This document shows, piece after piece, positions 3,508 to 25,820 of a stretch of DNA of 31,146 nt (position 1 is its first letter; the number at the start of each line of letters is the position of its first letter). The translations under genes were made by a program, and so were the position numbers. The notes beneath the pieces were generated by a model. That model was not told the origin of the DNA, did not search any database, and saw nothing but the letters and a program-made list of their open reading frames with translations. This DNA is from an uncultured Duganella sp. (GTDB lineage Bacteria; Pseudomonadota; Gammaproteobacteria; Burkholderiales; Burkholderiaceae), in NCBI GenBank assembly GCA_946482635.1, contig CAMLSG010000039.1:1-31146 (forward strand), given 5' to 3'.

Positions 3508-3687
3508 GTTGTAAATCTCTCCTGAAGCAGTTATAGATGTATTTTTTGGATGGAACAACAAGCCCCGCCGGGCTTAGCACTCAACAGCGTGAGCGGCGAG
3601 TATAACTACGAAAACTTAGCTGCCTGGATGCGATTCTTGATTAAAAATGAGTCAAGACCGCGCGCGCAACGTTAGAAGGAGTCCTCA
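3508..3687. other. Divergent intergenic region between peptidase and small exported protein
   Basis: This 180-base spacer must hold the start signals of both divergent genes, but no promoter with two good hexamers is visible. A TATACT hexamer reads toward the peptidase at 3604-3599 without a matching -35. A 6-bp hairpin (AAGCCC-CGCC-GGGCTT) at 3560-3575 would fall in the peptidase leader if that -10 is used. A second imperfect dyad (CTTGA ... TCAAG) lies near 3634-3655. Confidence 0.35.
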
Positions 3688-6520: not shown

Positions 6521-9265
6521 ATGTCCCGTCTGATTACCATTGCCGCCGGCGCTGCCCTGCTTACGCTGCTGGCCTGCCAGCGAATGAAACCGGTAGCCGA
6601 TGTGCTTGCCGATGCACGCAAGGCGCATCTCGGCGGTGAAGATCGGGCGGCAGTGATCCATCTCAAGAACCTGCTGCAACAGGAACCCGGCCATGCGGCG
6701 GCACGGCGTATGCTGGGTGAATTGCACCTGGTGCTGGGCGATGCCGTCTCAGCCGAAAAAGAGCTGCGCCGAGCGCTGGCACTCGGCCAGCCCCGCCAGG
6801 AACTGTTGCCATTGCTGGTCCGGGCAATGCTGGCGCAAGCCTCCTACCAGGGTGTATTGGAGGAATTACAGGCGGAGCCGGCGCGCCCGGTCGTCCTGGC
6901 CTGGCGCGCCGACGCCTTGCTGGGGCTGGGCAAAGCGGACGACGCCGGCCTGCTTTACAGCCAGGCCCTGGGCAAGGACGCCAAACTGATCGGAGCCCAC
7001 CTGGGCCAGGCAAGGCTCGCCCTGCTCCGCAATGATGCAGGTGCAGCCAGCGAATCCGTCGAGCGCGCCCTGGCTTCCGGCCCCTACGATACGGACGCAT
7101 TGCGCTTTCGCGGCGACCTGCTGCGCCTGCGCGGCGACCTCGCTGGCGCCGTCGCGGCTTATCGCCTGGTCCTCGCACACGACCGGAACAATGCGCAAGC
7201 CTATGCCGACATTGCTGCGCTCCACCTTTTGGAAGGCAAACCGGGCTTGGCCCGGCAACAGCTTGAAGCTGCACGCAAAGTGCAGCCGGCCAGCCTGGTG
7301 ATCCTCTACACGCAGGGCTTGCTTGACCTGGCGGAAGGAAAGCACAAGGCCGCCCTCGAACGGGCGCAAATGGTGTTGCGCTCAGCACCGGACCACCTGC
7401 CCAGCATGCTGCTGGCCGCATCGGTAGAGCTGGAAACCGGCGCCACAACCCAGGCCCGCGCCCATATCCTGCGTTATCGCCAAGCCCAGCCCAGGGAGCC
7501 CTTCGCCCTACGCTTGCAAGCCCTGTGCGATTTACGCGATAGCAAAGAGGCAGATGCCCTGGCATTGCTGGAAGCCGCCATTGCCGACCACCCGCAGCAG
7601 GTCGACTTGCTGGCGCTGGGCGGAGAGGCGGCCATGCGCGCCGGCAAGCATGAGCTGGCCGCCCGCTGGTTCGGGCAAGCCAGCAGCCTTGCGCCGGAAT
7701 CCGGCAGTTTGCAGGCCGCGAACGGGCTCAGCCTTCTTAGCCAGGGACAGGATGCCCGCGCGATAGGCGTCCTCGAACAAGCCATGCAGAAGGAAGGTGC
7801 GGCCGCGGCGCGGGCCGGCTCTTTGCTGGTGATGACCTATCTGCGCAACCGCGATTTTGCGAAAGCGATGGAACGGGTACGCCAGATGGAAGCGCAGGAC
7901 GACAATCCTTCGCTGCAAAACCTGAAAGGCGGGGTACTGCTGGCAAGCGGCGACCTGGCCGGCGCGCGCACGGCATTTGCGCGCTCATTGCAACTGGACC
8001 CGTCGCACCTGCCGGCGCTCGACAACCTGGCCGAACTGGACATGCTGGAGAAGAAGGCGCCCCAGGCACGCCAGCGCTACGCAGCCGCGCTGGAACGCAA
8101 GCGCAACAGCGTGCCCTTGATGATGGCGCTGGCCAGGCTGGAGACACGGGAAGGCAATGTACCTGCAGCGATCGGCTGGCTGGAGCGGGCTATTGCCGCG
8201 GTGCCCGATGCGATGGCGCCCGCGCAAACCCTGGCGGCCCTCTATTTGCGCGACGGGCAGGCGGCGAAAGCGCTGCGCCAGGCCCAGCGTCTGCAAGCGC
8301 AGCACCCGAACGAACCGGCCAGCCTGGATTTGCTGGCCCAGGCCGAGTCTGCAGCCGGCCAGCACGCGCAAGCACTGGATAGCCTGCAGAAGCTTGCCCT
8401 CCGGCGCCCCCTCGAAGCCGATATACCGATGCGCATGGCCCGCAGCTCGCTCGCCATGGGCCAGAAGGAACCGGCCTTGAATGCCGTGCGCAAGGCGCTT
8501 GCACTCGCTCCAGGGCGCGAAGATGCCCTGCTGCTTGCGAGTGCCTTGCTGCTGGACCGCCGGGCATTCGACGAGGCGCGCAAGCTGGCGCAGGCGGTGC
8601 AGCAACGGCAACCGGGCGCCGGCCTCGGTTTCAAGCTCGAAGGCGATGCCCTGCTGGAAGAGGGCAAGGCGGCGGACGCTGTGGCGCAGTACGAACGGGC
8701 GTACGCCTTGCAGCGCATCGGTCCGGTAATGATTGCGCTGCATCGCGCCCTGCATGCCGCCGGCAAGCCGGACGCCGCCGACCAGCGCATGCGCGACTGG
8801 CTTGGCCAGCACGCCACCGACCAGCCCACACGCCTCTACTACGCAAGCCATCTGCTGCAACAGTCGCGGTTCAGCGCTGCGCGGCATGAGTACGAAACTA
8901 TCCTGCAACGCGACCCGGACAATGTGCTGGCCCTGAACGACCTGGCTTGGGCGCTGCTGCAGGCCAAGGAGGGCGATGCCCTTCCGCCGGCCGAGCGCGC
9001 TTACCGGCTAGCCCCTCGCAATCCTGCGGTGGCGGACACCCTGGCCTGGGTGCTGGCGGAGCGCGGAAGCGCGGCCCGTGCCCTGCCCCTGCTGAAAAAG
9101 GCGTTGGAAACCGCACCGGCGGCCAGCGATATCAGGCTGCATTACGCCCACGTGCTGTTCCGCAGCGGCGACAAGCGGGCTGCGCGCGGACAGTGTGAGC
9201 AACTGCTGGCGCTCCAGGGCTTTGCGCACCGTGCCGAAGTCGAAAGCTTGCTGGCCAAGCTGTAG
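6521..9265 (+). CDS. prsT: PEP-CTERM system TPR-repeat lipoprotein PrsT
   Basis: A 914-residue lipoprotein almost wholly made of tetratricopeptide repeats. The ATG at 6521 follows CAGGAG. The signal peptide ends in the lipobox LLAC, giving Cys19 as the lipidated residue. From about residue 28 to the end, 34-residue TPR units follow one another (for example LKNLLQQEPGHAAARRMLGE and the late YYASHLLQQSRFSAARHEYE). Length, architecture and context match the PrsT family (TIGR02917) found beside exosortase/PEP-CTERM exopolysaccharide genes. It is thought to act as a periplasmic scaffold for polysaccharide or protein export; its exact role is not established. It is the first gene of the locus and is followed, after a sigma-54 promoter, by a putative exosortase substrate. 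Confidence 0.93.
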   Translation: MSRLITIAAGAALLTLLACQRMKPVADVLADARKAHLGGEDRAAVIHLKNLLQQEPGHAAARRMLGELHLVLGDAVSAEKELRRALALGQPRQELLPLLVRAMLAQASYQGVLEELQAEPARPVVLAWRADALLGLGKADDAGLLYSQALGKDAKLIGAHLGQARLALLRNDAGAASESVERALASGPYDTDALRFRGDLLRLRGDLAGAVAAYRLVLAHDRNNAQAYADIAALHLLEGKPGLARQQLEAARKVQPASLVILYTQGLLDLAEGKHKAALERAQMVLRSAPDHLPSMLLAASVELETGATTQARAHILRYRQAQPREPFALRLQALCDLRDSKEADALALLEAAIADHPQQVDLLALGGEAAMRAGKHELAARWFGQASSLAPESGSLQAANGLSLLSQGQDARAIGVLEQAMQKEGAAAARAGSLLVMTYLRNRDFAKAMERVRQMEAQDDNPSLQNLKGGVLLASGDLAGARTAFARSLQLDPSHLPALDNLAELDMLEKKAPQARQRYAAALERKRNSVPLMMALARLETREGNVPAAIGWLERAIAAVPDAMAPAQTLAALYLRDGQAAKALRQAQRLQAQHPNEPASLDLLAQAESAAGQHAQALDSLQKLALRRPLEADIPMRMARSSLAMGQKEPALNAVRKALALAPGREDALLLASALLLDRRAFDEARKLAQAVQQRQPGAGLGFKLEGDALLEEGKAADAVAQYERAYALQRIGPVMIALHRALHAAGKPDAADQRMRDWLGQHATDQPTRLYYASHLLQQSRFSAARHEYETILQRDPDNVLALNDLAWALLQAKEGDALPPAERAYRLAPRNPAVADTLAWVLAERGSAARALPLLKKALETAPAASDIRLHYAHVLFRSGDKRAARGQCEQLLALQGFAHRAEVESLLAKL

Positions 9266-9328: not shown

Positions 9329-9360
9329 ATATGGGTCATATCCATCATTGGGAGCACACC

Positions 9361-10248
9361 ATGTTCAAGAGCGTACTTTGCGTGGGCGCCGCCTGGCTTG
9401 CGGCCATGGCCATCACCGGATCCGCAGCAGCTGCACCACTTGCCCCGTTCGTGCTGCACTCGGCGGGCGCCGTCGAGATCAAGTTCAGCGGCTACCTGGC
9501 GCGCAGCGGCGATGCCGGGGGCGGCGCAGGCATCCGCGAAGCCAGCTTTGGCGCGGGCTACATGACCAGTATCAGCGAACTGGGCAACCCGGCCAACCAG
9601 CTGTGGCGCAGCGGACAGGACAATCAAAGCATATCGTTCATGCTGTATGGCGCCGGCGATGCCGCGGTACTGCCGCTGGCAGGTTCCGCCAGCCACCAGG
9701 TATTGGGGACCGGCTGCACGCATCTCTCCTTCGGTTGCGACGGCAAGATCCACCTCGATTTTTATCTCGACAAGCTAAGCGGGGGCAGCAATCCCGGCTT
9801 TGGCATAGGCGGCGTCAAGGCGTCGCAGCGCAGCGCCTTCAACCGGCTAGGCGGCATCACCGACGGCGCGCTGTTGATGCGCTGGGAATTCGTGCCTGGC
9901 TTGTCCGATGCTACGGCAAGCGGCGCGCCGGTCACGCTGTACCAGCAACTGGGCGGCGCCGCGTCGCCCTCCCCCGGCTTCGCAAGCTACCTGGCGCGCT
10001 GCGCCGGCGGCCCGGCTTGCAGCTACTTCGGCACCGGCATGCAGCAGGCGGGAGCCGACTTTTATGGGAGCAACACCATGACCAGCATCCTGGCCATGAC
10101 CGCCATCGGCCAGAACGGATGGGCCGCTCGCCTGTCCGACCCGGTGCTCGCCCAGGTGACGCTAGGGCAGCCGTCCGTCGCTAGCTTGCTGCCGCTCGGC
10201 GCAGCCGTGTTGATCTTCATTCGGCGGCGGCGTCAGCGCGGCTGGTAG
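9361..10248 (+). CDS. Exported protein with a degenerate PEP-CTERM-like sorting tail
   Basis: A 295-residue exported protein of unknown function. The ATG at 9361 follows TTGGGAG; a signal peptide ends near GSAAAAP (about residue 23). The body is glycine- and serine-rich with no domain I recognise, as is usual for PEP-CTERM proteins. Two cysteine pairs (TGCTHLSFGC and RCAGGPAC) could form disulfides. The C-terminus has the tripartite layout of an exosortase signal: a short motif, a hydrophobic helix (SLLPLGAAVLIFI) and an arginine cluster (RRRRQR). However, the expected Pro-Glu-Pro is replaced by Gly-Gln-Pro (269-271). A sigma-54 promoter precedes it, as for the canonical PEP-CTERM gene at 12731. 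The last 16 bases overlap the 3' end of the convergent oxidase gene. Confidence 0.82.
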   Translation: MFKSVLCVGAAWLAAMAITGSAAAAPLAPFVLHSAGAVEIKFSGYLARSGDAGGGAGIREASFGAGYMTSISELGNPANQLWRSGQDNQSISFMLYGAGDAAVLPLAGSASHQVLGTGCTHLSFGCDGKIHLDFYLDKLSGGSNPGFGIGGVKASQRSAFNRLGGITDGALLMRWEFVPGLSDATASGAPVTLYQQLGGAASPSPGFASYLARCAGGPACSYFGTGMQQAGADFYGSNTMTSILAMTAIGQNGWAARLSDPVLAQVTLGQPSVASLLPLGAAVLIFIRRRRQRGW

Positions 10249-11843
10249 CGGCCTGGAGCGATAATGTGCCGGGGATCGAGCGCGTCCTTGATACGGGCCA
10301 CGGTTCGCCAGTACGTATCGTGCCCGCTGTCGAGCGCTGCCATCGCTTGCGGTCCGACCCGGTAAGGAAGGTAGCCTGCGCCCATCAAGCGCGCCAAGGA
10401 TGCTTCATGGCACAGCCTGGCACGCGCGACTTCCGCCGCGTCCTGCTGGTCGAAGCAGATGGTGAGGACGGCCCCCAGCACGCGTTCGTTGATCATGCTG
10501 AAGGTTTCGAACAGGTCGAAGCCATGCGCGGCAAACACGGGTTCTACCAGGCTGTGCACATGCAGCAGGTCGGTGCCGCGCATCGGCAGCACGGGCGCCA
10601 GCCACATCATTCCACAGCCGTCGCGCGCGGGGTTGGCACCGAGCGGGAATCCCGGCGGCAGGCCGCCGCGGCGGCGCCAGTACGCCCCCGCCAGGAAGCG
10701 GCCATCGGGGATGCCGCGATTCATGTTCAGCAGCGAACGGCCAAGGTCCACCTGCGCGGCCAGGCGACTGCCCAGCCTGCCCTGTCCCAGCATGCGGGCG
10801 GCGGCGGCGCCCAGCGACAGCGCTTTCTCGTCAATGAAGCGCAAGCGGGCAAACTTCGCGATCGCCTTGCGCAAGGCACTGCGTGCGTCCGCAACCTGGG
10901 CGCTGCGGCCGTAAAGGGCGGCCGACACGGTCCACGCCCCGATCCCGGCACGCTGGCACAAGCTGGTCCGCAACTGCGCAGGCAACGGCGGCCCTTGCGG
11001 CGCGAGCGCGTGCGGGAACACCATCCCGCCCGACAGCACGCGCAAGTCATTCCCGATATGCACGACACTGGACAAGGTGCCGTCCATGCGCAGCGGCCGG
11101 AGCGCGTCGACCACGGCCGCGATGTCCTCGAACCGAGATACGCTCGCGACCAGGTGGCTTACCACTTGCGTTTGCGGCATCAGCCAGAAGCCGAGGCTGG
11201 TAACGATGCCGAAGTTGGACTGGGTGAACAGCCCGTCCAGCCACGGGCCGACCCCATAAGGGTAAAGGTGGGCGGCGGCGGCACGGGCGAAATGGCTGTA
11301 GCCGGTTTCCAGGGTATCGCCGTTGGCAAGCACGATGCGCATGCCGGCCACATGCAGGATGCGGTTGCCGTAAGGCGTGTGGCCAAAGCCGCGTTCGAGG
11401 ATGTTGCCGACCAGGCTGGTATCCGGGCCGGCGCCGGTGCAGTCCATCCACAAGGGAAGTCCAAGCTCGGCCAGCCGGCCGGCAAGCTGGGCCTGCGTGA
11501 CGCCCGGCTCGATGACCGCATAGGCCAGCTCGCGATTGATGTCGAGGATGCGGTTCATGCCACCGAGATCGACGATGACCTGGCCTTCACCGCAGGGATT
11601 GGCGTCGCCGTAGCCCCAGTTGCGCCCGGTGCTGATCGGATACAGCGGCAGCCCGAATTCGCTGGCGCTCCTCACCACGGCGACCACTTCCCCATGCGAC
11701 AAGGGCCGCAGTACCGCCAGCGGCGCCACCGGCGCGGCCGAAGTGCTGGCCATGTACGGTCGGAGCTCGCTGGAAGCTGTCAGCACGCGGGCGGGGCCAA
11801 GCAGCAAGCGCCAGGCCTGTATTGCTGGATCGATGTGCTTCAT
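10233..11843 (-). CDS. FAD-dependent oxidase of the VAO/PCMH family
   Basis: A 536-residue flavoprotein. The N-terminal half is a PCMH-type FAD-binding domain: PLAVLRPLSHGEVVAVVR, STGRNWGYGDANP (71-83), the LGGMNRILDIN strand, IEPGVTQAQL, and GNILERGFGHTPYGNR (146-161). The C-terminus has the family's closing signature (KDALDPRHIIAPGRY). In vanillyl-alcohol oxidase and p-cresol methylhydroxylase a late Tyr-Arg pair holds the substrate phenolate; here a Tyr-Arg pair occurs at 494-495 (GYLPYRVG) at the corresponding distance from the end. This points to an aromatic, perhaps para-substituted phenol, substrate. The ATG at 11843 is 1 base after the stop of the N-acyl amino acid synthase gene, so the two are almost certainly co-translated. 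No signal peptide is present, so it is cytoplasmic. The substrate is inferred. Confidence 0.88.
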   Translation of the reverse strand: MKHIDPAIQAWRLLLGPARVLTASSELRPYMASTSAAPVAPLAVLRPLSHGEVVAVVRSASEFGLPLYPISTGRNWGYGDANPCGEGQVIVDLGGMNRILDINRELAYAVIEPGVTQAQLAGRLAELGLPLWMDCTGAGPDTSLVGNILERGFGHTPYGNRILHVAGMRIVLANGDTLETGYSHFARAAAAHLYPYGVGPWLDGLFTQSNFGIVTSLGFWLMPQTQVVSHLVASVSRFEDIAAVVDALRPLRMDGTLSSVVHIGNDLRVLSGGMVFPHALAPQGPPLPAQLRTSLCQRAGIGAWTVSAALYGRSAQVADARSALRKAIAKFARLRFIDEKALSLGAAAARMLGQGRLGSRLAAQVDLGRSLLNMNRGIPDGRFLAGAYWRRRGGLPPGFPLGANPARDGCGMMWLAPVLPMRGTDLLHVHSLVEPVFAAHGFDLFETFSMINERVLGAVLTICFDQQDAAEVARARLCHEASLARLMGAGYLPYRVGPQAMAALDSGHDTYWRTVARIKDALDPRHIIAPGRYQPR

Positions 11844-11844
11844 G

Positions 11845-12558
11845 TCAGTCCCTTCCCTCGCGCAGGCGCACCGTGATACCGGCCTCGTCCAGCGGAGAAA
11901 AAAAGTAGGGATAAAAGGAGCGCTCGTTCGGCACCGATTCCATGCGCCCGCCGTACAGCCGGATCTGCTCCGTCATGTGCGACAGGTCCAGCCGCAGCAG
12001 CACGGCCGGTGCGCCCACCCGGCTGCAATGGCGCTCCGCCGCGGCATCGCGAAAGCCCAGCATGCGCTTGTAGAAGCGTACATGGCGTGGATTGACTTCG
12101 ATCACATAATCCGTGCAGCCATGCAGCTTATGGGCATAGACATAGGAAATGTGGATCAGTGCGGCGAACACCCGCATATTCACATTGCGGTCGATGGCCA
12201 GGCGCGCCGGCTCGCACAGGCGCCGCCCTTGCGACCGCAAGCCGGACAAGATGTCGCCAAAGTTTTCATCGGCCGGCAGTCCGATGGCGGGGTCATCCAG
12301 GCAGAGCGACATCGTGCCGACAGTTTCGCCCTGGCTATCGGCGGCCAGCGTAATGCGGTTGGGTTCGTGGGGCGCGTTGGGATCCACTTCGTAACCGCGC
12401 CAGCCGTACATTTTCTGCAAAAGCACGCTGGCCGCTTCGCGCTGGCCGGCCGAATTGGCCAGCCGGATATGGAACAGTTGCTGGTCGATTGCATGCAGCG
12501 GCTGCTGGCCGCTGGCGTTCTCGTCAATCAACAAGGAAACAATGGTGTCGTCGTCCAC
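11845..12558 (-). CDS. N-acyl amino acid synthase (FeeM-like, GNAT fold)
   Basis: A 237-residue acyltransferase predicted to join a long-chain acyl group, normally from an acyl carrier protein, to the amino group of an amino acid. The GTG at 12558 is chosen because GGAGGG lies 6 bases upstream; the frame is open further but without such a site. Family hallmarks are FHIRLANSAGQREAASVLLQKMYGWRGYEV (29-58 region), the TVGTMSLCLDD strand, the CEPARLAIDRN segment (115-125), and EVNPRHVRFYKRMLGF (154-169). These match the FeeM-type NAS group, known to co-occur with PEP-CTERM/exosortase loci. No acyl carrier protein gene is seen here. The gene is divergent from the canonical PEP-CTERM gene and is translationally coupled to the flavin oxidase. 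The amino acid used cannot be read from sequence. Confidence 0.88.
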   Translation of the reverse strand: MDDDTIVSLLIDENASGQQPLHAIDQQLFHIRLANSAGQREAASVLLQKMYGWRGYEVDPNAPHEPNRITLAADSQGETVGTMSLCLDDPAIGLPADENFGDILSGLRSQGRRLCEPARLAIDRNVNMRVFAALIHISYVYAHKLHGCTDYVIEVNPRHVRFYKRMLGFRDAAAERHCSRVGAPAVLLRLDLSHMTEQIRLYGGRMESVPNERSFYPYFFSPLDEAGITVRLREGRD

Positions 12559-12570: not shown

Positions 12571-12628
12571 TATCGGAATGGGGCTTGGACGCACGGGCGG
12601 GCATAAGGTTCCGCCGCGTCGGATTTCT

Positions 12629-12663: not shown

Positions 12664-12679
12664 TGGCACGGATGCTGCT
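12664..12679 (+). promoter_or_regulatory. Sigma-54 (-24/-12) promoter of the PEP-CTERM gene
   Basis: TGGCACGGATGCTGCT: a perfect TGGCACG -24 element and CTGC at -12, with exactly 10 bases between GG and GC. Expected transcription start is near 12690, about 41 bases before the ATG at 12731. PrsR is the obvious candidate activator. Confidence 0.85.
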
Positions 12680-12730: not shown

Positions 12731-13669
12731 ATGACTACCTTCCGCAAGTCTGTTCTGGCAACTGCCGCCTTCCTGGCGGCCGGCATTGCCAGCATCCCGG
12801 CCCAGGCGTCCACGTTCGCCTCGGCCATCCTCGACATCAACAACTTCCGCCTGCTGCACTCGAACGGCACCGCCTACAGCACCACCGACTTCACGATCCT
12901 GCAAGGCACCAACGATGCGCACGCCACGGCATCGCTGAACGGCATCTTTAAGAACGGCACCTCATCGATCCCCATCCTGACCGGCACCCCCAACGTGCTG
13001 CAGCAGTGCGTGGGGGCAACGTGCCCGGTGCTGGGCAATAACGACTTCACGCCTTTCCCCTACCCTGGCCCGGTGCCGGGCACCTTCGGCTATGCCGACC
13101 AGGACCTGACCGGCGCCTCGATCACCATCGGCGCCCAGCCTGCCGGCGCGCGCGCCCGTACCCGCGCCGATGCATCGACGGCCCTGAATGCCATTGCCTC
13201 GGGCAACTCCGACGTCGGCACGTCCACCACTTTCCAGTTCACCCTTGGCGCGGCAGATACCATGACCGTGTCCTTCGACGCTTCCGCCTTTACCCAGGCC
13301 TACGTGTCCCCCGGATCCGGGCCGGATGCCAATGCCAACGCGCGCCTCTCGTGGTCCATCAATATCGTCGAGCTGACCGGCCAGACCAGGATCTTCGACT
13401 TTGCGCCGGAAGCGCTGAACGCTTTCAGCGTACGCAGCCGTACGGACGGCAGCCCCGGCATCCTGACCTACACCTTTGCCACCGTCCCGGGCACCCCGCT
13501 CACCAAGGTGTCGCCTTTGCTGACGGCAGGTACCAGCTACCAGATCACGATCCAGCACAACACGCTGGCCAATGCACTGCAGCAGGAATTGCCTGAACCG
13601 GACTCGCTGGCCGTGCTTGCGGCAGGCATGCTGGCCATGTCGGTCGCCCTGCGCCGCCGCAAATCCTGA
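12731..13669 (+). CDS. PEP-CTERM sorting domain protein
   Basis: A 312-residue exported protein ending in a canonical exosortase sorting signal: LPEPDS (Pro288-Glu289-Pro290), the hydrophobic segment LAVLAAGMLAMSVAL, and RRRKS at the C-terminus. The ATG at 12731 follows GGGAGA; the signal peptide ends around IPAQAS (residue 23). The middle is a Ser/Thr/Ala/Gly-rich, probably beta-sheet domain without recognised enzyme motifs. There is one cysteine pair (QQCVGATCPV). Such proteins are thought to be cleaved by an exosortase (XrtA) and exported to the surface or matrix together with exopolysaccharide. The gene has a sigma-54 promoter and is followed by a hairpin and the chain-length determinant gene. 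Its specific function is unknown. Confidence 0.92.
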   Translation: MTTFRKSVLATAAFLAAGIASIPAQASTFASAILDINNFRLLHSNGTAYSTTDFTILQGTNDAHATASLNGIFKNGTSSIPILTGTPNVLQQCVGATCPVLGNNDFTPFPYPGPVPGTFGYADQDLTGASITIGAQPAGARARTRADASTALNAIASGNSDVGTSTTFQFTLGAADTMTVSFDASAFTQAYVSPGSGPDANANARLSWSINIVELTGQTRIFDFAPEALNAFSVRSRTDGSPGILTYTFATVPGTPLTKVSPLLTAGTSYQITIQHNTLANALQQELPEPDSLAVLAAGMLAMSVALRRRKS

Positions 13670-13771: not shown

Positions 13772-15295
13772 ATGGAGCATCTTCTCAGCCAATTGCTGTC
13801 CAGCCTGAAAGGCATGTGGAAGCACCGCTGGGCCGGGTTCAGCGTGGCTTGGCTGGTCGTGCTGGCGGGCTGGGCCAAGGTCTATTCCCTGCCCAATGAA
13901 TACCAGAGCACGGCACGGGTATTCGTCGACACGCAAAGCGTCCTGAAGCCGCTGATGGTGGGCATGACCAGCATGCCCAACGTCGAACAGCAAGTGGCCA
14001 TCATGAGCAGGACCCTCCTCAGCCGTCCCAATATCGACCGCGTGCTGCGCATGGTCGACCTGGACGTGCGGACCGTGACGGCACGCGAGCATGACGCGAT
14101 GGTCGACGACATGCTGAAGCGCATCCACATCAACGGTACCGGTACTTACGATATTTACACCATCAGCTACATGCAATCGGACCCGCGCCAGGTGCGCGAC
14201 GTGGTGCAGGCCCTGCTGTCGATCTTCGTTGAAGGCAGCTTCAAAGGGAAAAAAGGCGATTCGGAGAAAGCGGTTCAGTTCATCGACGAGCAGATCAGGA
14301 ATTATGAGGACCGCCTGCTTGCGGCAGAGAACCAGGTCAAGGAATTTCGCTTAAAACATAACTACATCCTGCCGCGCGAGGGACAGGATTACGGCGGCAA
14401 GCTGCTGTCGGCCAGCGAAGCGCTGGCCAGCGCCCAACTCGAGCTGGCCGAGGCGGAACAGGCGCGCAAGGCCATTGAAGCGCAATTTGGCGGCGATGAA
14501 CCCCTGCTGGCTGCTGTCGGCGCGCCAGGCGATGCGTCCGAACTCGACTCGAGGATCAGTGCCCTGAACAAAAACCTCGACGCCTTGCGCATGCAATATA
14601 CCGACCAGCATCCCGATGTTGCCGCGGCCCTGCGCCTGGTCGCCCAGCTCGAAGAGAAGCGGCAGCAAGAGCGCCTGAAGCAGCCCGAACCAGGCGATAC
14701 AGCCCGCCAGTATAGCCCCTTGTTCCAGCAAATGAAGGTGGCACAGGCCGAGGCGGAAGCGCGGGTAGCGGCCCTGCACGCCCGTGTCGAGGCCATGCAG
14801 CGCCGCCAGTCGCAGTTGCAGGAACAGCGCAATGCGGTACCGGAGCTCGAGTCCCAGTTGGGCCAACTGACGCGCGACTACCAGGTCAACAAAGAGAACT
14901 ATGAAAAGCTGATTGCCCGCCGCGAGGCGGCCAAGCTGTCGGGGGAGTTGACAACGACCACAGAGATGATGAGCTTCAAGATCATCGATCCCCCCACCAT
15001 GCCGCTGCGCCCGATTGGTCCTAACCGCGCCCTCTACTACAGCGCAGTCCTCGCCGCCGGCCTGCTGGGCGGGGCCGCGGCCGCACTGGGCCTGGCGGAA
15101 TTGCGCCCTACGTTCCTGAGTCCTGCCGAGCTGCGGGCAAAGACCGGCCTGCGCGTCCTCGGCACCATTGGCATGAACTGGACCGACGATGAAAAACTGC
15201 GCCATGCACGCGACCGCCTGGGCTTCAGTGCCGGCAGCGCCTGCCTCTTGCTCGGCTATGGCGGCGTGATGGCCTTTACCCTGTTCTACCAGTAA
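13772..15295 (+). CDS. XrtA-system polysaccharide chain-length determinant
   Basis: A 507-residue inner-membrane co-polymerase of the Wzz/PCP family, of the type found with exosortase A (TIGR03007-like). The ATG at 13772 follows AGGGAGCG. The first membrane helix is at about 20-38, directly after MWKHRWAG. The periplasmic region starts with PNEYQSTARVFVDTQSVLKPLM and includes a long coiled coil (about 170-370, rich in Glu, Gln, Leu and Ala). The proline-rich PPTMPLRPIGPNR segment precedes the second membrane helix (about 421-445), and a further hydrophobic segment forms the extreme C-terminus. It sets exopolysaccharide chain length and works with the tyrosine autokinase encoded 11 bases downstream. 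A TATAAT lies upstream at 13731 but has no recognisable -35. Confidence 0.92.
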   Translation: MEHLLSQLLSSLKGMWKHRWAGFSVAWLVVLAGWAKVYSLPNEYQSTARVFVDTQSVLKPLMVGMTSMPNVEQQVAIMSRTLLSRPNIDRVLRMVDLDVRTVTAREHDAMVDDMLKRIHINGTGTYDIYTISYMQSDPRQVRDVVQALLSIFVEGSFKGKKGDSEKAVQFIDEQIRNYEDRLLAAENQVKEFRLKHNYILPREGQDYGGKLLSASEALASAQLELAEAEQARKAIEAQFGGDEPLLAAVGAPGDASELDSRISALNKNLDALRMQYTDQHPDVAAALRLVAQLEEKRQQERLKQPEPGDTARQYSPLFQQMKVAQAEAEARVAALHARVEAMQRRQSQLQEQRNAVPELESQLGQLTRDYQVNKENYEKLIARREAAKLSGELTTTTEMMSFKIIDPPTMPLRPIGPNRALYYSAVLAAGLLGGAAAALGLAELRPTFLSPAELRAKTGLRVLGTIGMNWTDDEKLRHARDRLGFSAGSACLLLGYGGVMAFTLFYQ

Positions 15296-15306: not shown

Positions 15307-16071
15307 ATGCAATTGCCGCCCACTTTATTGGAAGTTGCCCCGCCTGCCGAAACGGGCTATGCCGACATCAACCTGGTCAGGATGCGGCAACGGGGCATGG
15401 TCACCCACGAGAGCGGCCGCACCTCGGTCGCCGAGGACTTCCGGATCGTCAAGCGCCACCTGCTGAACGATGCGCGCTGTACCGGGGCCAACGCTATCCC
15501 GCATGGCAACCTGGTGGTCGTCACCAGCGCCCTGCCTGGCGAGGGAAAGACGTACTGCGCCGTCAACCTGGCCATGAGTATCTCGATGGAAAAGGATGCC
15601 AGGGCGCTCTTGGTGGATGCGGACGTGGCACGCCCCTCGGTGCTGAAAGTGCTTGGCCTCCAGGCGGAACGTGGATTGATGGATGTGCTGCTGGACGGCA
15701 GCATCGAACTGTCGGACGTCATCCTGCGCACCAACGTCCCTTCCCTGAGCCTGCTTCCCTCCGGCCCGGCCAGCCGGCATGCGACCGAGCTCCTTGCCAG
15801 CCGCAACATGAGCCGCCTTCTCGAAGAACTGGCCAGCCGCTATCCTGACCGGATCATCGTGTTCGATTCGCCGCCCTTGCTCCTGACCACGGAGGCGAGC
15901 GTGTTGGTTTCGCAAATGGGACAGGTGGTCATGGTGGTTGAGGCCGAGACCACCACGCAGTCCGCGGTGCAAGCTGCGCTGCAGCGCATCGAGCATTGCC
16001 GGCACGTGAACCTGGTCTACAACAAGTCGCACGCGTTTCCCGGCGCCCAATATTACGGGTACTACGAATGA
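15307..16071 (+). CDS. XrtA-associated tyrosine autokinase
   Basis: A 254-residue cytoplasmic BY-kinase that partners the chain-length determinant. It has the Walker A motif SALPGEGKT (74-82, Lys81), Walker A' ALLVDAD (100-106, with Asp104 and Asp106), Walker B IIVFDSPP (183-190) and a C-terminal tyrosine cluster (Tyr249, 250, 252, 253) that would be autophosphorylated. The short N-terminal part with VAEDFRIVKRHLL is typical of this family. The ATG at 15307 follows CGGAGC, 11 bases after the chain-length gene. The stop overlaps the start of the methyltransferase gene (ATGA), indicating translational coupling. Phosphorylation cycling of the tyrosine tail is expected to control polymer export, by analogy with Wzc/CapB systems. 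Confidence 0.92.
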   Translation: MQLPPTLLEVAPPAETGYADINLVRMRQRGMVTHESGRTSVAEDFRIVKRHLLNDARCTGANAIPHGNLVVVTSALPGEGKTYCAVNLAMSISMEKDARALLVDADVARPSVLKVLGLQAERGLMDVLLDGSIELSDVILRTNVPSLSLLPSGPASRHATELLASRNMSRLLEELASRYPDRIIVFDSPPLLLTTEASVLVSQMGQVVMVVEAETTTQSAVQAALQRIEHCRHVNLVYNKSHAFPGAQYYGYYE

Positions 16072-22186: not shown

Positions 22187-22791
22187 TCCTGCTTGCAGCG
22201 CTCGCTGCCGACTGTCCGCCCTTCACCAAGGGCAGCACCGGCGGCGATTACAACAACACGGAAGACGCCAAAGGCCTGTCCGTGGTCGAAACCTTCCATT
22301 TCGGCCCGCAAGTGGAGTCCCTGCAGCGCGGGATGACGGGTACCCTTGGCGGCGATATCGGCTATACGCTGGAGCATTTCCCCAACCATCCGCGCGCCCT
22401 GGCGGCGATGGCGCGCCTGGGCCTGCGGCTGAAGAAACCCCAGGCGCCCGGCGCGGCCCACGCGGTCGATTGCTACTTCCAGCGCGCCATCGCATTCGTC
22501 CCCGCAGACGGCGCCGCACGCGCACTGTACGGCGCCTACCTTTTATCGCTACGGCGCAATGGCGATGCGATCGAACAGCTGCAGGCCGCGCTCAAGTCAC
22601 AGCCCGGCAATGCGGCCGGCTGGTACAACCTCGGCCTGGCGCGGGTACGCCAAAAGGACTGGCCGGCGGCGCGCGATGCAGCACACAAGGCCTATGGCCT
22701 TGGCTTCCCGCTCCCAGGCCTGCGGCAGCAGCTGAAAACAGCGCGCGAATGGCGCGAGCCAGAGTCACTTGATCCCGTGGTGGCTCATTAA
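22171..22791 (+). CDS. Small TPR protein of the exopolysaccharide locus
   Basis: A 206-residue protein with TPR-like repeats. The ATG at 22171 follows CGGAGA and lies 16 bases inside the end of the GNAT-like gene. The N-terminus (MPAYLILLAALAADC) looks like a short export signal, perhaps a lipoprotein with Cys15. An N-terminal conserved region (DAKGLSVVETFHFGPQVESLQRG, then GGDIGYTLEHFPNHPRALAAM) is followed by about three TPR units (ALYGAYLLSLRRNGDAIEQL, GWYNLGLARVRQKDWPAA) and the ending KAYGLGFPLPGLRQQL. I recall similar proteins in other PEP-CTERM-type loci, but no function is established. Its last 27 bases overlap the 3' end of prsR on the other strand. Confidence 0.8.
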   Translation: MPAYLILLAALAADCPPFTKGSTGGDYNNTEDAKGLSVVETFHFGPQVESLQRGMTGTLGGDIGYTLEHFPNHPRALAAMARLGLRLKKPQAPGAAHAVDCYFQRAIAFVPADGAARALYGAYLLSLRRNGDAIEQLQAALKSQPGNAAGWYNLGLARVRQKDWPAARDAAHKAYGLGFPLPGLRQQLKTAREWREPESLDPVVAH

Positions 22792-24111
22792 GTCGTACAG
22801 CGTGGGACGACTCACACCCAGCAATTCGGAAGCACGCGCAATATTGCCTCCGGTGCGCGCCAGCGCTTTCACCATTACCCGGTATTCAGCGGCGTTGCGC
22901 GCGTCGCGCAGATCGATGTTTTCCGCCTGGGGCGCGCCGGGAGGCAAGCCGAGGTCCTCCAGCGTGATATGGGGTCCCTCGCTCATGATCGCCGCCCGCT
23001 TGACGCAGTTTTCGATCTCCCGCACATTGCCCGGCCAGCCATATGCCTCAATCGCGGCCAGGGCATCCGGGTGGAATGGCAAGGCGGGACGCCCCTCGGC
23101 CTGCAGGAACCGGTGGCGGAAGTGCTGCGCCAGCAGGACCGCATCGCCGATTCGCTCGCGCAGCGGCGGCACGACCAGCACGATTTCACTCAGGCGGTAG
23201 AACAGGTCTTCCCGAAACCGTCCCTCATCTACCATGGCCTTCAGGTTGCGGTGCGTGGCGCAGACAATCCTGACATCGACTGCGATTTCACTGCGGCCGC
23301 CCAGGCGCTCGATCACGCGCTCCTGCAGGAAACGCAGCATCTTTGCCTGTAGCGGCAAGGCCATGTCGCCGATTTCATCGAGGAAGAAAGTGCCACCGGC
23401 TGCCAGCTCGATCTTCCCCAGCGTTTGCCGTTCGGCGCCGGTAAACGCGCCTTTTTCGTAGCCGAACAACTCACTTTCCAGCAAGTGTTCGGGAATCGCA
23501 GCGCAGTTGATGGCCACCATGCGCCGATCGTGGCGCGAGCTGAGCTGGTGCAGCCCGCGCGCGAGAACCTCCTTGCCGCTGCCGGAAGCGCCCATCAGCA
23601 TCACCGTCGCGGAACTCGGAGCGACCTTTTCGATGCTTCGGCACACGCGCAGCATGCCCGGGTCGCGCGTGACCAGCCCAGCCAGCGGCGAATCGGCTTC
23701 GGTCTGCAGCATGCGCCGGTTGTCTTGCTGGACGCCGTGCAGGAAGAACGCCCGGTCAGCCATCAGGCGCAGCATCTCGCCGTCCAGCGGCTTCTGGTGG
23801 AAATCGTAGGCTCCAAGCGCCATCGCTTTCAGCACGTTCTCCCGATCCTGGTTGCCGGACAGGACGATCACCTTGGTATCGGCAGCGATTGCCAGCATCT
23901 GCTGCAGCAACAGCAAGCCTTCGCTTGCACTGTCAGGTTCCGGCGGCAGGCCCAGGTCCATCGTCACCACTGCCGGCTGGTGCCGGCGCAACTGCCCGAG
24001 GGCGGCATCGCGGTTGGCCGCAAACACCACCTCATACGTGTCCAGGGCCCAGCGCAACTGCTTCTGCAGGCCCAGGTCGTCCTCCACCACGAGCAGCTTT
24101 TTCTTGGTCAT
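22765..24111 (-). CDS. prsR: PEP-CTERM-box response regulator PrsR (sigma-54 activator)
   Basis: A 448-residue NtrC-type regulator. The receiver domain at 1-125 has the phospho-acceptor Asp52 (TMDLGLP) and conserved Lys107. The AAA+ sigma-54 interaction domain at about 145-375 has the Walker A motif GASGSGKE (174-181), GAFTGA (221-226, contacting sigma-54) and Walker B FFLDEIGD. The Fis-type helix-turn-helix (GNIARASELLGVSRPTLYDLM) is at the C-terminus. The start at 24111 (MTKKKLLVVEDD) is set by the receiver domain; its ribosome site is weak. This matches the PrsR family (TIGR02915), thought to activate PEP-CTERM genes. Two sigma-54 promoters in this window (9313, 12664) are fitting targets. 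The usual partner kinase PrsK is not present in the window. Confidence 0.95.
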   Translation of the reverse strand: MTKKKLLVVEDDLGLQKQLRWALDTYEVVFAANRDAALGQLRRHQPAVVTMDLGLPPEPDSASEGLLLLQQMLAIAADTKVIVLSGNQDRENVLKAMALGAYDFHQKPLDGEMLRLMADRAFFLHGVQQDNRRMLQTEADSPLAGLVTRDPGMLRVCRSIEKVAPSSATVMLMGASGSGKEVLARGLHQLSSRHDRRMVAINCAAIPEHLLESELFGYEKGAFTGAERQTLGKIELAAGGTFFLDEIGDMALPLQAKMLRFLQERVIERLGGRSEIAVDVRIVCATHRNLKAMVDEGRFREDLFYRLSEIVLVVPPLRERIGDAVLLAQHFRHRFLQAEGRPALPFHPDALAAIEAYGWPGNVREIENCVKRAAIMSEGPHITLEDLGLPPGAPQAENIDLRDARNAAEYRVMVKALARTGGNIARASELLGVSRPTLYDLMSHHGIK

Positions 24112-24212
24112 GAGCCCATGATGCAGCATGCCGCCAGTGGGGCTTTTGAGGCAGCGCAACGGCAAATAGTTTATATTGTTGCCTATTACGCGAAAAAACA
24201 GACCGAAACACC

Positions 24213-25820
24213 ATGAAATTCGACGTTGTGATTGTCGGCAGCGGCCTGGCCGGCCTCTCTGTTGCACTTCACCTGGCGGAAAGCCGCAAAGTAGCCATCA
24301 TCTCCAAACGTGCCCTGCTCGATGGCGCCAGTAACTGGGCCCAGGGCGGCATCGCCGCCGTGCTCGATTCCGGCGACAGCCACGAGCAGCATATTGCCGA
24401 TACCCTGGTGGCCGGCGGCGGCTTATGCGACGAAGGCGCGACCCGCTTTATCGTCGAGCACGGCCGCGAGGCCATCGAATGGCTGATCGGCCTTGGCGTG
24501 CCCTTTACCCGCGACGAGAACGCGGAACTGGGTTTCCATCTGACCCGTGAAGGCGGCCATAGCCAGCGGCGCATCATCCATGCGGCCGACGCCACCGGCC
24601 ATGCCGTGCAGGTCACGCTGGAAGAAAAAGTGCGGGCGCATCCGAATATCAGCCTGTTCGAGCAGCACTGCGCGATTGACCTGATCACCACCGACAAGCT
24701 GGGCCCGCGCCCTGCCAATTCGCAGCCGCGCTGCCACGGCTTGTATGTACAGGACGTGACCACCGGCCAGGTGCATACCGTCACCGCGGAACACACAGTG
24801 ATGGCAACCGGCGGCGCCGGCAAAGTCTACCTGTACACCACCAATCCCGATACCGCCAGCGGCGACGGCATTGCGATGGCCTGGCGTGCCGGTTGCCGCG
24901 TGTCGAATATGGAGTTCATCCAGTTCCATCCGACCTGCCTGTACCACCCTTACGCCAAATCCTTCCTGATCACGGAGGCGATCCGCGGCGAAGGCGGCTT
25001 GCTCAAGCTGCCGCCGGAAGCGGGTGCCGCCGCCGGCCAGCGTTTCATGCTGGCCCACGACGAACGCGCCGAACTGGCGCCGCGCGACGTGGTGGCGCGC
25101 GCCATCGACTTCGAGATCAAGAAACGCGGCCTCGATTACGTGCACCTGGATATCAGCCACAAGCCGGCCGAATTCCTGATCGAGCACTTCCCGACCATCT
25201 ATGCGCGCTGCCTGGAGCTGGGCATCGACATTACCAAACAGCCGATTCCTATCGTGCCTGCAGCGCACTATACCTGCGGCGGCGTGGTGACCGACCTGTT
25301 CGGCCGTACCGACCTGCCCGGCCTGTACGCGGTAGGCGAAACAGCCTGCACCGGCCTGCACGGCGCCAACCGCCTGGCCAGCAACTCCCTGCTCGAATGC
25401 GTGGTGATTGGCCGCGCCTGCGCCCAGGACATTCTTGCCAAAGACAAGGAAAGCACGCCCTACCTGCCGGACTGGGACGAAAGCCGCGTCACCGACGCCG
25501 ACGAGGAAGTGGTCATCGCCCACAACTGGGATGAACTGCGCCGCTTCATGTGGAACTATGTGGGCATCGTCCGCACCACCAAGCGCCTGGAGCGCGCCCA
25601 GCACCGGATCGCGCTGCTGAAAGAGGAAATCGACGAGTACTACCGCCATTTCCGCATCACCAGCGACCTGCTGGAATTGCGCAACCTGGTGGAAGTGGCA
25701 TCGCTGATCGTCAACAGCGCGCTGCAGCGCCGCGAAAGCCGGGGCCTGCATTTCAGCCGCGACTACCCGGCTACCCTGCCGAAGGCGCTGCCGACCGTGC
25801 TGACGCCGGAGCGCCGCTAA
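24213..25820 (+). CDS. nadB: L-aspartate oxidase
   Basis: A 535-residue cytoplasmic flavoprotein that oxidises L-aspartate to iminoaspartate, the first step of de novo NAD synthesis. The N-terminal FAD-binding motif is [19 protein letters not shown]. There follow [12 protein letters not shown] and the active-site region with HPTCLYHP and [57 protein letters not shown] is the fumarate reductase/NadB signature, and a helical C-terminal domain holds [13 protein letters not shown]. The ATG at 24213 begins right at the flavin motif but has no clear Shine-Dalgarno. Length is normal for the family. No nadA or nadC is adjacent. The last 4 bases overlap the convergent solute-binding protein gene. Confidence 0.96.

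What the first reader, a model, noticed from the sequence alone, without database searches (positions are those of the whole stretch)
10233..12558. N-acyl amino acid synthase coupled to a VAO/PCMH-type flavin oxidase inside a PEP-CTERM locus
Seen: a FeeM-like synthase (EVNPRHVRFYKRMLGF at 154-169) is followed after a single base (TGA-C-ATG) by a flavin oxidase with the PCMH FAD domain and a late Tyr-Arg pair (494-495). Known: N-acyl amino acid synthases have been linked to PEP-CTERM/exosortase loci, and VAO/PCMH enzymes oxidise para-substituted phenols, using a Tyr-Arg pair to hold the phenolate. Inference: the pair makes an N-acyl aromatic amino acid (tyrosine is the natural guess) and then oxidises or dehydrogenates it, giving an N-acyl dehydro-amino acid or enamide that could act as a signal, a surface lipid or a cofactor of the sorting system. 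The coupling implies fixed stoichiometry and a two-step product rather than a simple N-acyl amino acid.
Basis: partly seen in the sequence, partly recalled or inferred. Interest (0 to 1): 0.78.

Follow-up and report, generated by a model that had tools for sequence, protein, structure and literature searches.

The report
Lipid-making gene paired with phenol oxidase
Some soil bacteria keep, beside genes for a surface-protein sorting system, a two-gene unit that probably joins a fatty acid to tyrosine and then oxidises it; relatives of the oxidase recur beside such synthase genes and surface-protein genes in several different arrangements, pointing to an unrecognised oxidised surface lipid.

Summary

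Pairing is real. OX1 lies directly downstream of NAS in 36 of 80 named NAS loci and at 23 of 23 testable sites in 195 genomes; none of the 137 NAS-less genomes has it. More diverged relatives are NAS-linked too. An EDSAP-1 PEP-CTERM gene borders 32 of 35 testable OX1 loci; elsewhere EDSAP-1 pairs border ThiF plus nitroreductase, the proposed N-acyl-tyrosine desaturation pair, while about a third of EDSAP-1 genes border neither.

Best reading: OX oxidises the NAS product, probably N-acyl tyrosine, to a quinone methide that likely loses CO2 to give an enamide, as reported for FeeG/CndG. No chemistry was tested. Pseudoduganella umbonata carries the pair, yet only saturated N-acyl Tyr/Phe is reported from it. 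Verdict: new variant of known chemistry, tied to exosortase loci.

The parts
11845..12558 (-). [quoted passage not shown] an upstream GTG at 12594 would give 249 aa)
   Evidence: PF21926 183.6 bits; PDB 2g0b FeeM E 3.3e-12; Glu116 aligns with 2g0b chain position 96, which I take to be catalytic Glu95
10233..11843 (-). VAO/PCMH-fold flavoprotein OX (536 aa), phenolate clamp Tyr78/Tyr494/Arg495; no VAO-type covalent His; tyrosyl-FAD link undecided
12731..13669 (+). EDSAP-1 family PEP-CTERM protein, divergent from NAS; model shows N-terminal helix, beta-sandwich, C-terminal helix after the PEP motif
   Evidence: NF041538 272.6 bits, cut-off 100; AF2 model pLDDT 81.5
12664..12679 (+). sigma-54 -24/-12 like element TGGCACGGATGCTGCT facing EDSAP-1
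   Evidence: in the window and in each of 28 further NAS/EDSAP intergenic regions the best-scoring site faces EDSAP-1, 8-10 of 11 consensus bases (28 of 29 score 9 or 10); sites towards NAS reach 8 in three regions and are not conserved; three OX-negative control regions reach 8 (position)
9358..10248 (+). Probable second PEP-CTERM-like surface protein, convergent with and overlapping the end of OX; its sorting motif is degenerate
   Evidence: 58% identical over 281 aa to a gene in L171 that ends in a plain PEP-CTERM motif; no family hit itself
6521..9265 (+). PrsT, XrtA/PEP-CTERM system TPR lipoprotein
   Evidence: TIGR02917 677.3 bits, cut-off 312.2
13772..15295 (+). XrtA system polysaccharide chain length determinant
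   Evidence: TIGR03007 554.9 bits, cut-off 278.85
15307..16071 (+). XrtA-associated tyrosine autokinase
   Evidence: TIGR03018 264.4 bits, cut-off 230.65
22765..24267 (-). PEP-CTERM-box sigma-54 response regulator
   Evidence: TIGR02915 696.6 bits, cut-off 502.6

Best explanation
A two-step biosynthetic unit. Step 1 (shown by family membership, activity inferred): the FeeM-type NAS joins a fatty acyl group from acyl-ACP to an aromatic amino acid, most likely tyrosine. Step 2 (fold and clamp residues shown by model and alignment, reaction inferred): OX binds the phenol of that lipid with Tyr78/Tyr494/Arg495 and moves a hydride from the benzylic carbon to FAD, giving a p-quinone methide. That intermediate most likely sheds its free carboxylate as CO2 to leave an N-acyl 4-hydroxystyrylamine (enamide), as reported for FeeG and CndG; re-aromatisation to N-acyl dehydrotyrosine is the second choice. 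The product serves the XrtA/PEP-CTERM surface system, most directly the EDSAP-1 (or another PEP-CTERM) protein encoded beside it (inference from gene neighbourhood only). The stated confidence is for oxidation of the NAS product by OX; the enamide in particular I put near 0.4.
Against: P. umbonata (L001) has NAS-OX1, two more NAS genes and an OX2a gene, but the literature reports only saturated N-acyl Tyr/Phe from the species (PMC12479983). Three members of the wider VAO group (L120, L121, L122) are in genomes without a PF21926 match. OX was not seen in 44 of 80 NAS loci, and 12 of 58 NAS genomes have neither oxidation system. Twenty-four of 72 EDSAP-1 matches lie away from both systems. The NAS amino acid is not determined; N-acyl phenylalanine could not be bound through a phenol. 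The PCMH catalytic glutamate Glu427 is replaced, so the PCMH mechanism cannot simply be transferred. Neighbourhood counts are not independent events, as the genomes are related.
Confidence: 0.6

Rival explanations
1. OX is a plain desaturase: the quinone methide tautomerises with the carboxylate kept, giving N-acyl 2,3-dehydrotyrosine, a kyonggic/thalassotalic-acid type lipid.
For: Such lipids are known from Massilia, Thalassotalea and Stieleria (PMC12479983, first two of five parts read); EDSAP-1 genes sit beside OX in some genomes and beside ThiF plus nitroreductase in others.
Against: P. umbonata with the pair is reported to make only saturated forms (PMC12479983). Nine genomes carry both OX1 and a NAS-x-nitroreductase operon, which suggests different products. 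A free carboxylate next to a quinone methide is said to decarboxylate readily (PMC3039461).
Confidence: 0.22
2. OX hydroxylates: water adds to the quinone methide as in PCMH, giving N-acyl beta-hydroxytyrosine.
For: The closest solved structure is 4-cresol dehydrogenase (hydroxylating).
Against: PCMH Glu427 is Thr447 (HMMER) or Phe448 (MAFFT) in OX, and Glu380 is Pro400 or Phe383; no cytochrome c gene was seen among the window ORFs scanned.
Confidence: 0.1
3. OX does not act on the NAS product but on a tyrosine of the neighbouring PEP-CTERM protein or a phenolic group of the exopolysaccharide; it shares the locus only because both serve the surface.
For: A PEP-CTERM gene is next to OX2b in 10 of 10 testable loci and EDSAP-1 is near OX1 in 32 of 35, nearly as tight a link as NAS itself.
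Against: No OX1/OX2 in 137 NAS-less genomes; OX1 directly follows NAS wherever testable; the two VAOs of the 44-45% group sit in NAS clusters without a PEP-CTERM gene that my pattern could see.
Confidence: 0.12
4. OX is a catabolic phenol oxidase that drifted next to NAS by chance and has no shared pathway.
For: The family includes catabolic 4-cresol and vanillyl alcohol enzymes.
Against: Conservation and recurrence of the linkage in several arrangements; OX1, OX2a and OX2b fall on one side of a branch supported 100/100, apart from 12 PCMH/eugenol-oxidase-type rows.
Confidence: 0.02

Closest known systems
FeeG of the fee eDNA cluster and CndG of chondrochloren biosynthesis (FAD-dependent oxidative decarboxylases of N-acyl tyrosine)
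   Same: Described as turning N-acyl-L-tyrosine into N-acyl 4-(2-aminovinyl)phenol, for the chondrochloren enzyme through a quinone methide (passages in PMC8762209 and PMC3039461; the name CndG is recalled). FeeG shares its cluster name with FeeM, the type member of this NAS family. A VAO of the 44-45% group sits with a NAS and a halogenase (L184), recalling chondrochloren (its chlorination recalled).
   Different: Those belong to natural-product clusters; OX1 and the OX2 genes here mostly sit in XrtA/PEP-CTERM loci beside PEP-CTERM protein genes. Sequence relationship not tested: neither sequence was held.
4-cresol dehydrogenase (PCMH) flavoprotein subunit, PDB 1dii/1wve
   Different: No residue match at covalent Tyr384 (Asn404 or Ala387, depending on the alignment; Tyr388 lies one position off), none at Glu380 (Pro400 or Phe383) or Glu427 (Thr447 or Phe448); extra stretches near 339-375 and 390-409; no cytochrome partner seen in the window.
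Vanillyl-alcohol oxidase and eugenol oxidase
   Different: Covalent His position is Met412; the Asp170/Asp151 position is Ala138 by alignment.
TyzC-type nitroreductase plus TyzB-type ThiF desaturation of N-acyl tyrosine (proposed for kyonggic, thalassotalic acids and stieleriacines; tyrazolone pathway)
   Same: Homologues follow a NAS gene (L079; 13 NAS-x-nitroreductase pairs under 1.3 kb) and adjoin EDSAP-1 gene pairs.
   Different: Non-homologous enzymes; no VAO involved.
NAS linkage to PEP-CTERM/exosortase loci (Craig, Cherry and Brady 2011, cited in PMC4897644 and PMC7293339; not read)
   Same: NAS genes next to PEP-CTERM genes.
   Different: Whether that paper mentions an oxidase partner could not be checked.

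Membership tests
FeeM-type N-acyl amino acid synthase (PF21926) | Family profile match over the curated cut-off | tested here: met
   183.6 bits against 27
FeeM-type N-acyl amino acid synthase (PF21926) | Catalytic glutamate (FeeM Glu95) | tested here: met
   Glu116 aligns with 2g0b chain position 96; the offset of one to Glu95 is assumed; the column is invariant in the 21 sequences of A1, window included
FeeM-type N-acyl amino acid synthase (PF21926) | Acyl-ACP dependent acylation of an amino acid | not testable with these tools
   Needs an assay
4-cresol dehydrogenase (PCMH) | VAO/PCMH fold | tested here: met
4-cresol dehydrogenase (PCMH) | Phenolate clamp Tyr95, Tyr473, Arg474 | tested here: met
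   Tyr78, Tyr494, Arg495; invariant in 15 NAS-linked VAOs; residue roles recalled
4-cresol dehydrogenase (PCMH) | Tyr384 covalently bound to FAD | tested here: inconclusive
   Asn404 by phmmer, Ala387 by MAFFT, so no Tyr at the exact position either way; but Tyr388, one off in the MAFFT alignment, is present in OX1 and OX2b rows (Leu in OX2a), so a shifted link is not excluded
4-cresol dehydrogenase (PCMH) | Active-site Glu427 | tested here: not met
   Thr447 or Phe448
4-cresol dehydrogenase (PCMH) | Cytochrome c subunit encoded nearby | tested here: not met
   No cytochrome among the window ORFs scanned
Vanillyl-alcohol / eugenol oxidase | Covalent His (VAO His422, EUGO His390) | tested here: not met
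   Met412 by alignment to eugenol-oxidase-type L127
Vanillyl-alcohol / eugenol oxidase | Active-site Asp170/Asp151 | tested here: not met
   Ala138 by profile alignment and in A3
FeeG/CndG N-acyl tyrosine oxidative decarboxylase | Sequence homology to FeeG or CndG | not testable with these tools
   Neither sequence held; original paper not held
FeeG/CndG N-acyl tyrosine oxidative decarboxylase | Conversion of N-acyl tyrosine to the enamide | not testable with these tools
   Needs an assay
XrtA/PEP-CTERM locus | XrtA-associated genes and a PEP-CTERM protein next to the pair | tested here: met
   PrsT, EDSAP-1, chain-length determinant, tyrosine kinase, PEP-CTERM response regulator
XrtA/PEP-CTERM locus | Exosortase gene itself | tested here: inconclusive
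   None found among the window ORFs scanned; the whole genome is not held

The most novel reading that the evidence does not exclude
Exosortase-type bacteria make a dedicated oxidised N-acyl tyrosine lipid that works together with a specific PEP-CTERM protein: as its ligand, its anchor or acceptor on the cell surface, or a reactive phenol that cross-links the matrix. Two unrelated oxidation systems (a VAO-fold flavoprotein of a distinct clade, and ThiF plus nitroreductase) have each come to lie beside members of the same PEP-CTERM family EDSAP-1, which would make these lipids a missing small-molecule arm of the PEP-CTERM system.
Probability: 0.3. Interest if true: 0.85.

Novelty: new variant of a known kind. 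Interest (0 to 1): 0.62.

Why it matters
N-acyl amino acid synthases have been known beside PEP-CTERM genes since 2011 (Craig et al., cited in PMC4897644), and I saw no explanation of why. A conserved oxidase partner, and the same surface protein family beside two unrelated oxidation systems, narrow the question to a testable one: which oxidised N-acyl tyrosine is made, and what does the PEP-CTERM protein do with it? It also points to a distinct VAO-fold clade, with the phenolate clamp but other catalytic residues, as a source of oxidases for acylated tyrosines.

Tried and rejected

Papers: PMC12479983 first two of five parts and passages; PMC7293339 one section and passages; PMC4897644, PMC8762209, PMC3039461, PMC9850573, PMC11631085 passages; PMC12856293 abstract and outline; Craig 2011 and Rachid 2010 not held, known only from citations and recall. 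That I know of no paper pairing NAS with a VAO in PEP-CTERM loci rests on the listings (top rows only) of searches.
Full report
WHAT IS THERE. On the minus strand, NAS (11845-12558) ends TGA, one base follows, and OX (10233-11843) begins ATG. NAS matches the FeeM family at 183.6 bits and the FeeM crystal sequence 2g0b at E 3.3e-12. OX matches PF01565; its best solved relatives are 4-cresol dehydrogenase 1wve/1dii at E 1.9e-77. Neighbours are XrtA/PEP-CTERM genes: PrsT, an EDSAP-1 PEP-CTERM protein, chain-length determinant, tyrosine kinase and the PEP-CTERM response regulator. Among the 120 listed of 2636 hits to OX, those with a name are mostly Pseudoduganella, Duganella and Massilia; the source genome itself is not held.

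IS THE PAIR CONSERVED? One scan of named genomes with a NAS alignment gave 80 loci (102 confirmed, best 80 kept). OX1 is in 36 of 80, in each directly downstream of NAS on the same strand. Every locus named Pseudoduganella or Massilia has it; no Janthinobacterium locus and only some Duganella and Rugamonas loci do. Of the 44 without, L073 and L074 end at NAS and are not testable. In three OX-less loci that I opened, the next large gene reads as a membrane protein (my reading, no family search). In 195 genomes drawn from the taxonomic family of P. umbonata (probably GTDB Burkholderiaceae; the tool does not say), 25 OX1 genes were found at 57-85% identity: 23 lie directly downstream of NAS, 2 lie within 10 bases of a contig end. 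Fifty-eight of 195 genomes have NAS; 26 of those 58 have OX1 or OX2, and 0 of 137 genomes without NAS do. From that count I left out two weaker hits (G054, G077) that have no NAS and fall with PCMH-type sequences in the tree. In a 392-genome search 17 OX1 loci were opened and all 17 have NAS directly upstream; 7 of these repeat genomes. In a class-wide sample of 369 genomes, apart from G001 24 had NAS, 13 had a VAO-type hit and one (G540) had both, on different contigs; so no further pair was seen in that sample.

RECURRENCE IN OTHER ARRANGEMENTS. One search also gave 13 hits of 34-36% identity. Eleven have a NAS nearby: 8 face one within 180 nt, one directly follows it (G152), one lies 1.3 kb (G107) and one 7.95 kb away (G001); the two others are G054 and G077. 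Nine of the 13 have an EDSAP-1 gene on the same strand within 400 nt. Two of these nine were placed on the tree and form OX2a; I take the other seven as OX2a from their neighbourhood. OX2b (G152, G107 and relatives) was searched in 392 genomes: 11 loci at 62-100% identity to G152. A PEP-CTERM gene is next downstream in 10 of 10 testable (one at a contig end); a NAS gene (PF21926 by Pfam, or 61% or more identical to one) is nearby in 8 of 8 testable, the other three being cut by contig ends. Two VAOs at 44-45% to OX2b (G587, G566) lie beside NAS and methyltransferase genes shown by Pfam in both; in G587 a HEAT protein, a tryptophan-halogenase-type gene and an amidase follow, with a further small gene between; G566 has similar-looking genes that I did not scan. 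Against: L120, L121 and L122 belong to the wider group but their genomes have no PF21926 match, and wider stretches around L120 and L121 show no obvious NAS or PEP-CTERM gene (by eye).

THE PEP-CTERM PARTNER. EDSAP-1 is divergently upstream of NAS in 32 of 35 testable OX-positive loci (in L055 only as a fragment; L006 not testable) and in 0 of 44 OX-negative ones (Fisher p 5e-19, but related genomes are not independent, and a distant EDSAP-1 would be missed). In the 195 genomes it is within 1.2 kb of OX1 in 19 of 23. The three named OX-positive loci without EDSAP-1 (L075, L077, L080) have exosortase-A-associated hydrolase 2 genes nearby, above the cut-off in all three, and L080 an acyl-CoA ligase match below its cut-off. 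A sigma-54-like element faces EDSAP-1 at 12664-12679. It is the best-scoring site in the window and in each of 28 further regions scored (of the 32), with 8 to 10 of 11 consensus bases, 9 or 10 in 28 of 29; sites towards NAS reach 8 in three regions and are not conserved; three OX-negative control regions reach 8. The RpoN-dependent pepA promoter mapped in Aquincola has the motifs TGGCAC and CTGCTT (passages of PMC9850573). The gene convergent with OX (9358-10248) is 58% identical to a protein with a plain PEP-CTERM tail in L171, so OX probably lies between two surface-protein genes.

A SECOND, UNRELATED OXIDATION SYSTEM. Ten genomes (unnamed; one contig length equals that of Janthinobacterium sp. 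LM6, so I call them Janthinobacterium-type) carry a tandem pair of EDSAP-1 genes. In 9 of 9 testable loci nitroreductase and ThiF genes follow, the nitroreductase within 120 bases in 8 and 758 in one (families shown for L140; the others by similarity; L191 is cut). Homologues of that ThiF (75%) and nitroreductase (64%) lie directly downstream of a NAS in L079. PMC12479983 (first two of five parts read) proposes this gene pair for N-acyl dehydrotyrosine formation. Against a strict rule: nine other EDSAP-1 loci that I opened (L141, L195-L202, 12 genes) have none of OX, NAS, ThiF or nitroreductase by tblastn, and by my tally of coordinates 24 of the 72 EDSAP-1 matches lie away from both systems. 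The nitroreductase is in 32 of 58 NAS genomes and 1 of 137 others; 46 of 58 NAS genomes have a VAO or the nitroreductase, 12 have both, 12 have neither; 9 have both OX1 and a NAS-x-nitroreductase pair under 1.3 kb. Thirty-three of 35 EDSAP-1 genomes have one of the two systems somewhere. Carrying both suggests that they make different products.

MECHANISM. Shown: gene order, families, fold, clamp residues, changed catalytic residues. Inferred: NAS makes N-acyl tyrosine; OX takes a hydride from its benzylic carbon; the quinone methide loses CO2. A review passage says FeeG turns N-acyl-L-tyrosines into N-acyl 4-(2-aminovinyl)phenols (PMC8762209), and another explains that a free carboxylate lets the quinone methide decarboxylate while a blocked one gives dehydrotyrosine (PMC3039461). 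The chief adverse fact is P. umbonata: strain CECT 7753 has NAS-OX1, two more NAS genes, an OX2a gene and no nitroreductase match, yet only saturated N-acyl Tyr and Phe are reported from strain LP01 (PMC12479983; whether the two are the same strain I did not check). This speaks against a released dehydrotyrosine; it leaves open an enamide, a cell-bound product, or genes not expressed in culture.

VERDICT. The chemistry is a variant of a known kind; its conserved link to exosortase loci and PEP-CTERM proteins, the distinct VAO-fold group and the EDSAP-1 neighbourhood of two oxidation systems appear new as far as the listings of searches show.

Noticed in passing
window 9358-10248 (+): Convergent neighbour of OX with a degenerate PEP-CTERM-like tail; relatives show LPEP, LPLP, DQP and GQP versions of the motif, possibly a drifting sorting signal.
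   Followed up: partly
L140 3943-8147 and L186-L194: Tandem EDSAP-1 genes beside ThiF and nitroreductase genes in Janthinobacterium-type genomes.
   Followed up: yes
L184 7194-15616, L185 4430-12901: Apparent natural-product clusters with NAS, methyltransferase and VAO genes; halogenase and amidase shown by Pfam for L184 only.
   Followed up: partly
L138 14324-16368, L179 6178-7095: HprK-related kinase A genes near OX2a and OX2b, with a neighbouring nucleotidyltransferase (PF14907) shown in L138.
   Followed up: no
window 10233-11843 (-), residue Cys410: A Cys-Gly pair invariant in the 15 NAS-linked VAOs aligned, its Cys two residues before the covalent His position of eugenol-oxidase-type relatives.
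   Followed up: partly
L138 7028-11515: Two NAS genes with a PrsT gene between them in G149, and similarly spaced NAS pairs in several other genomes.
   Followed up: no
L195-L202, L141: EDSAP-1 genes away from any NAS, VAO, ThiF or nitroreductase gene that I could find, including four in one stretch of G145.
   Followed up: partly
window 1372-3561 (-): 729-aa ORF with a thermolysin-type propeptide motif but no peptidase domain found.
   Followed up: no
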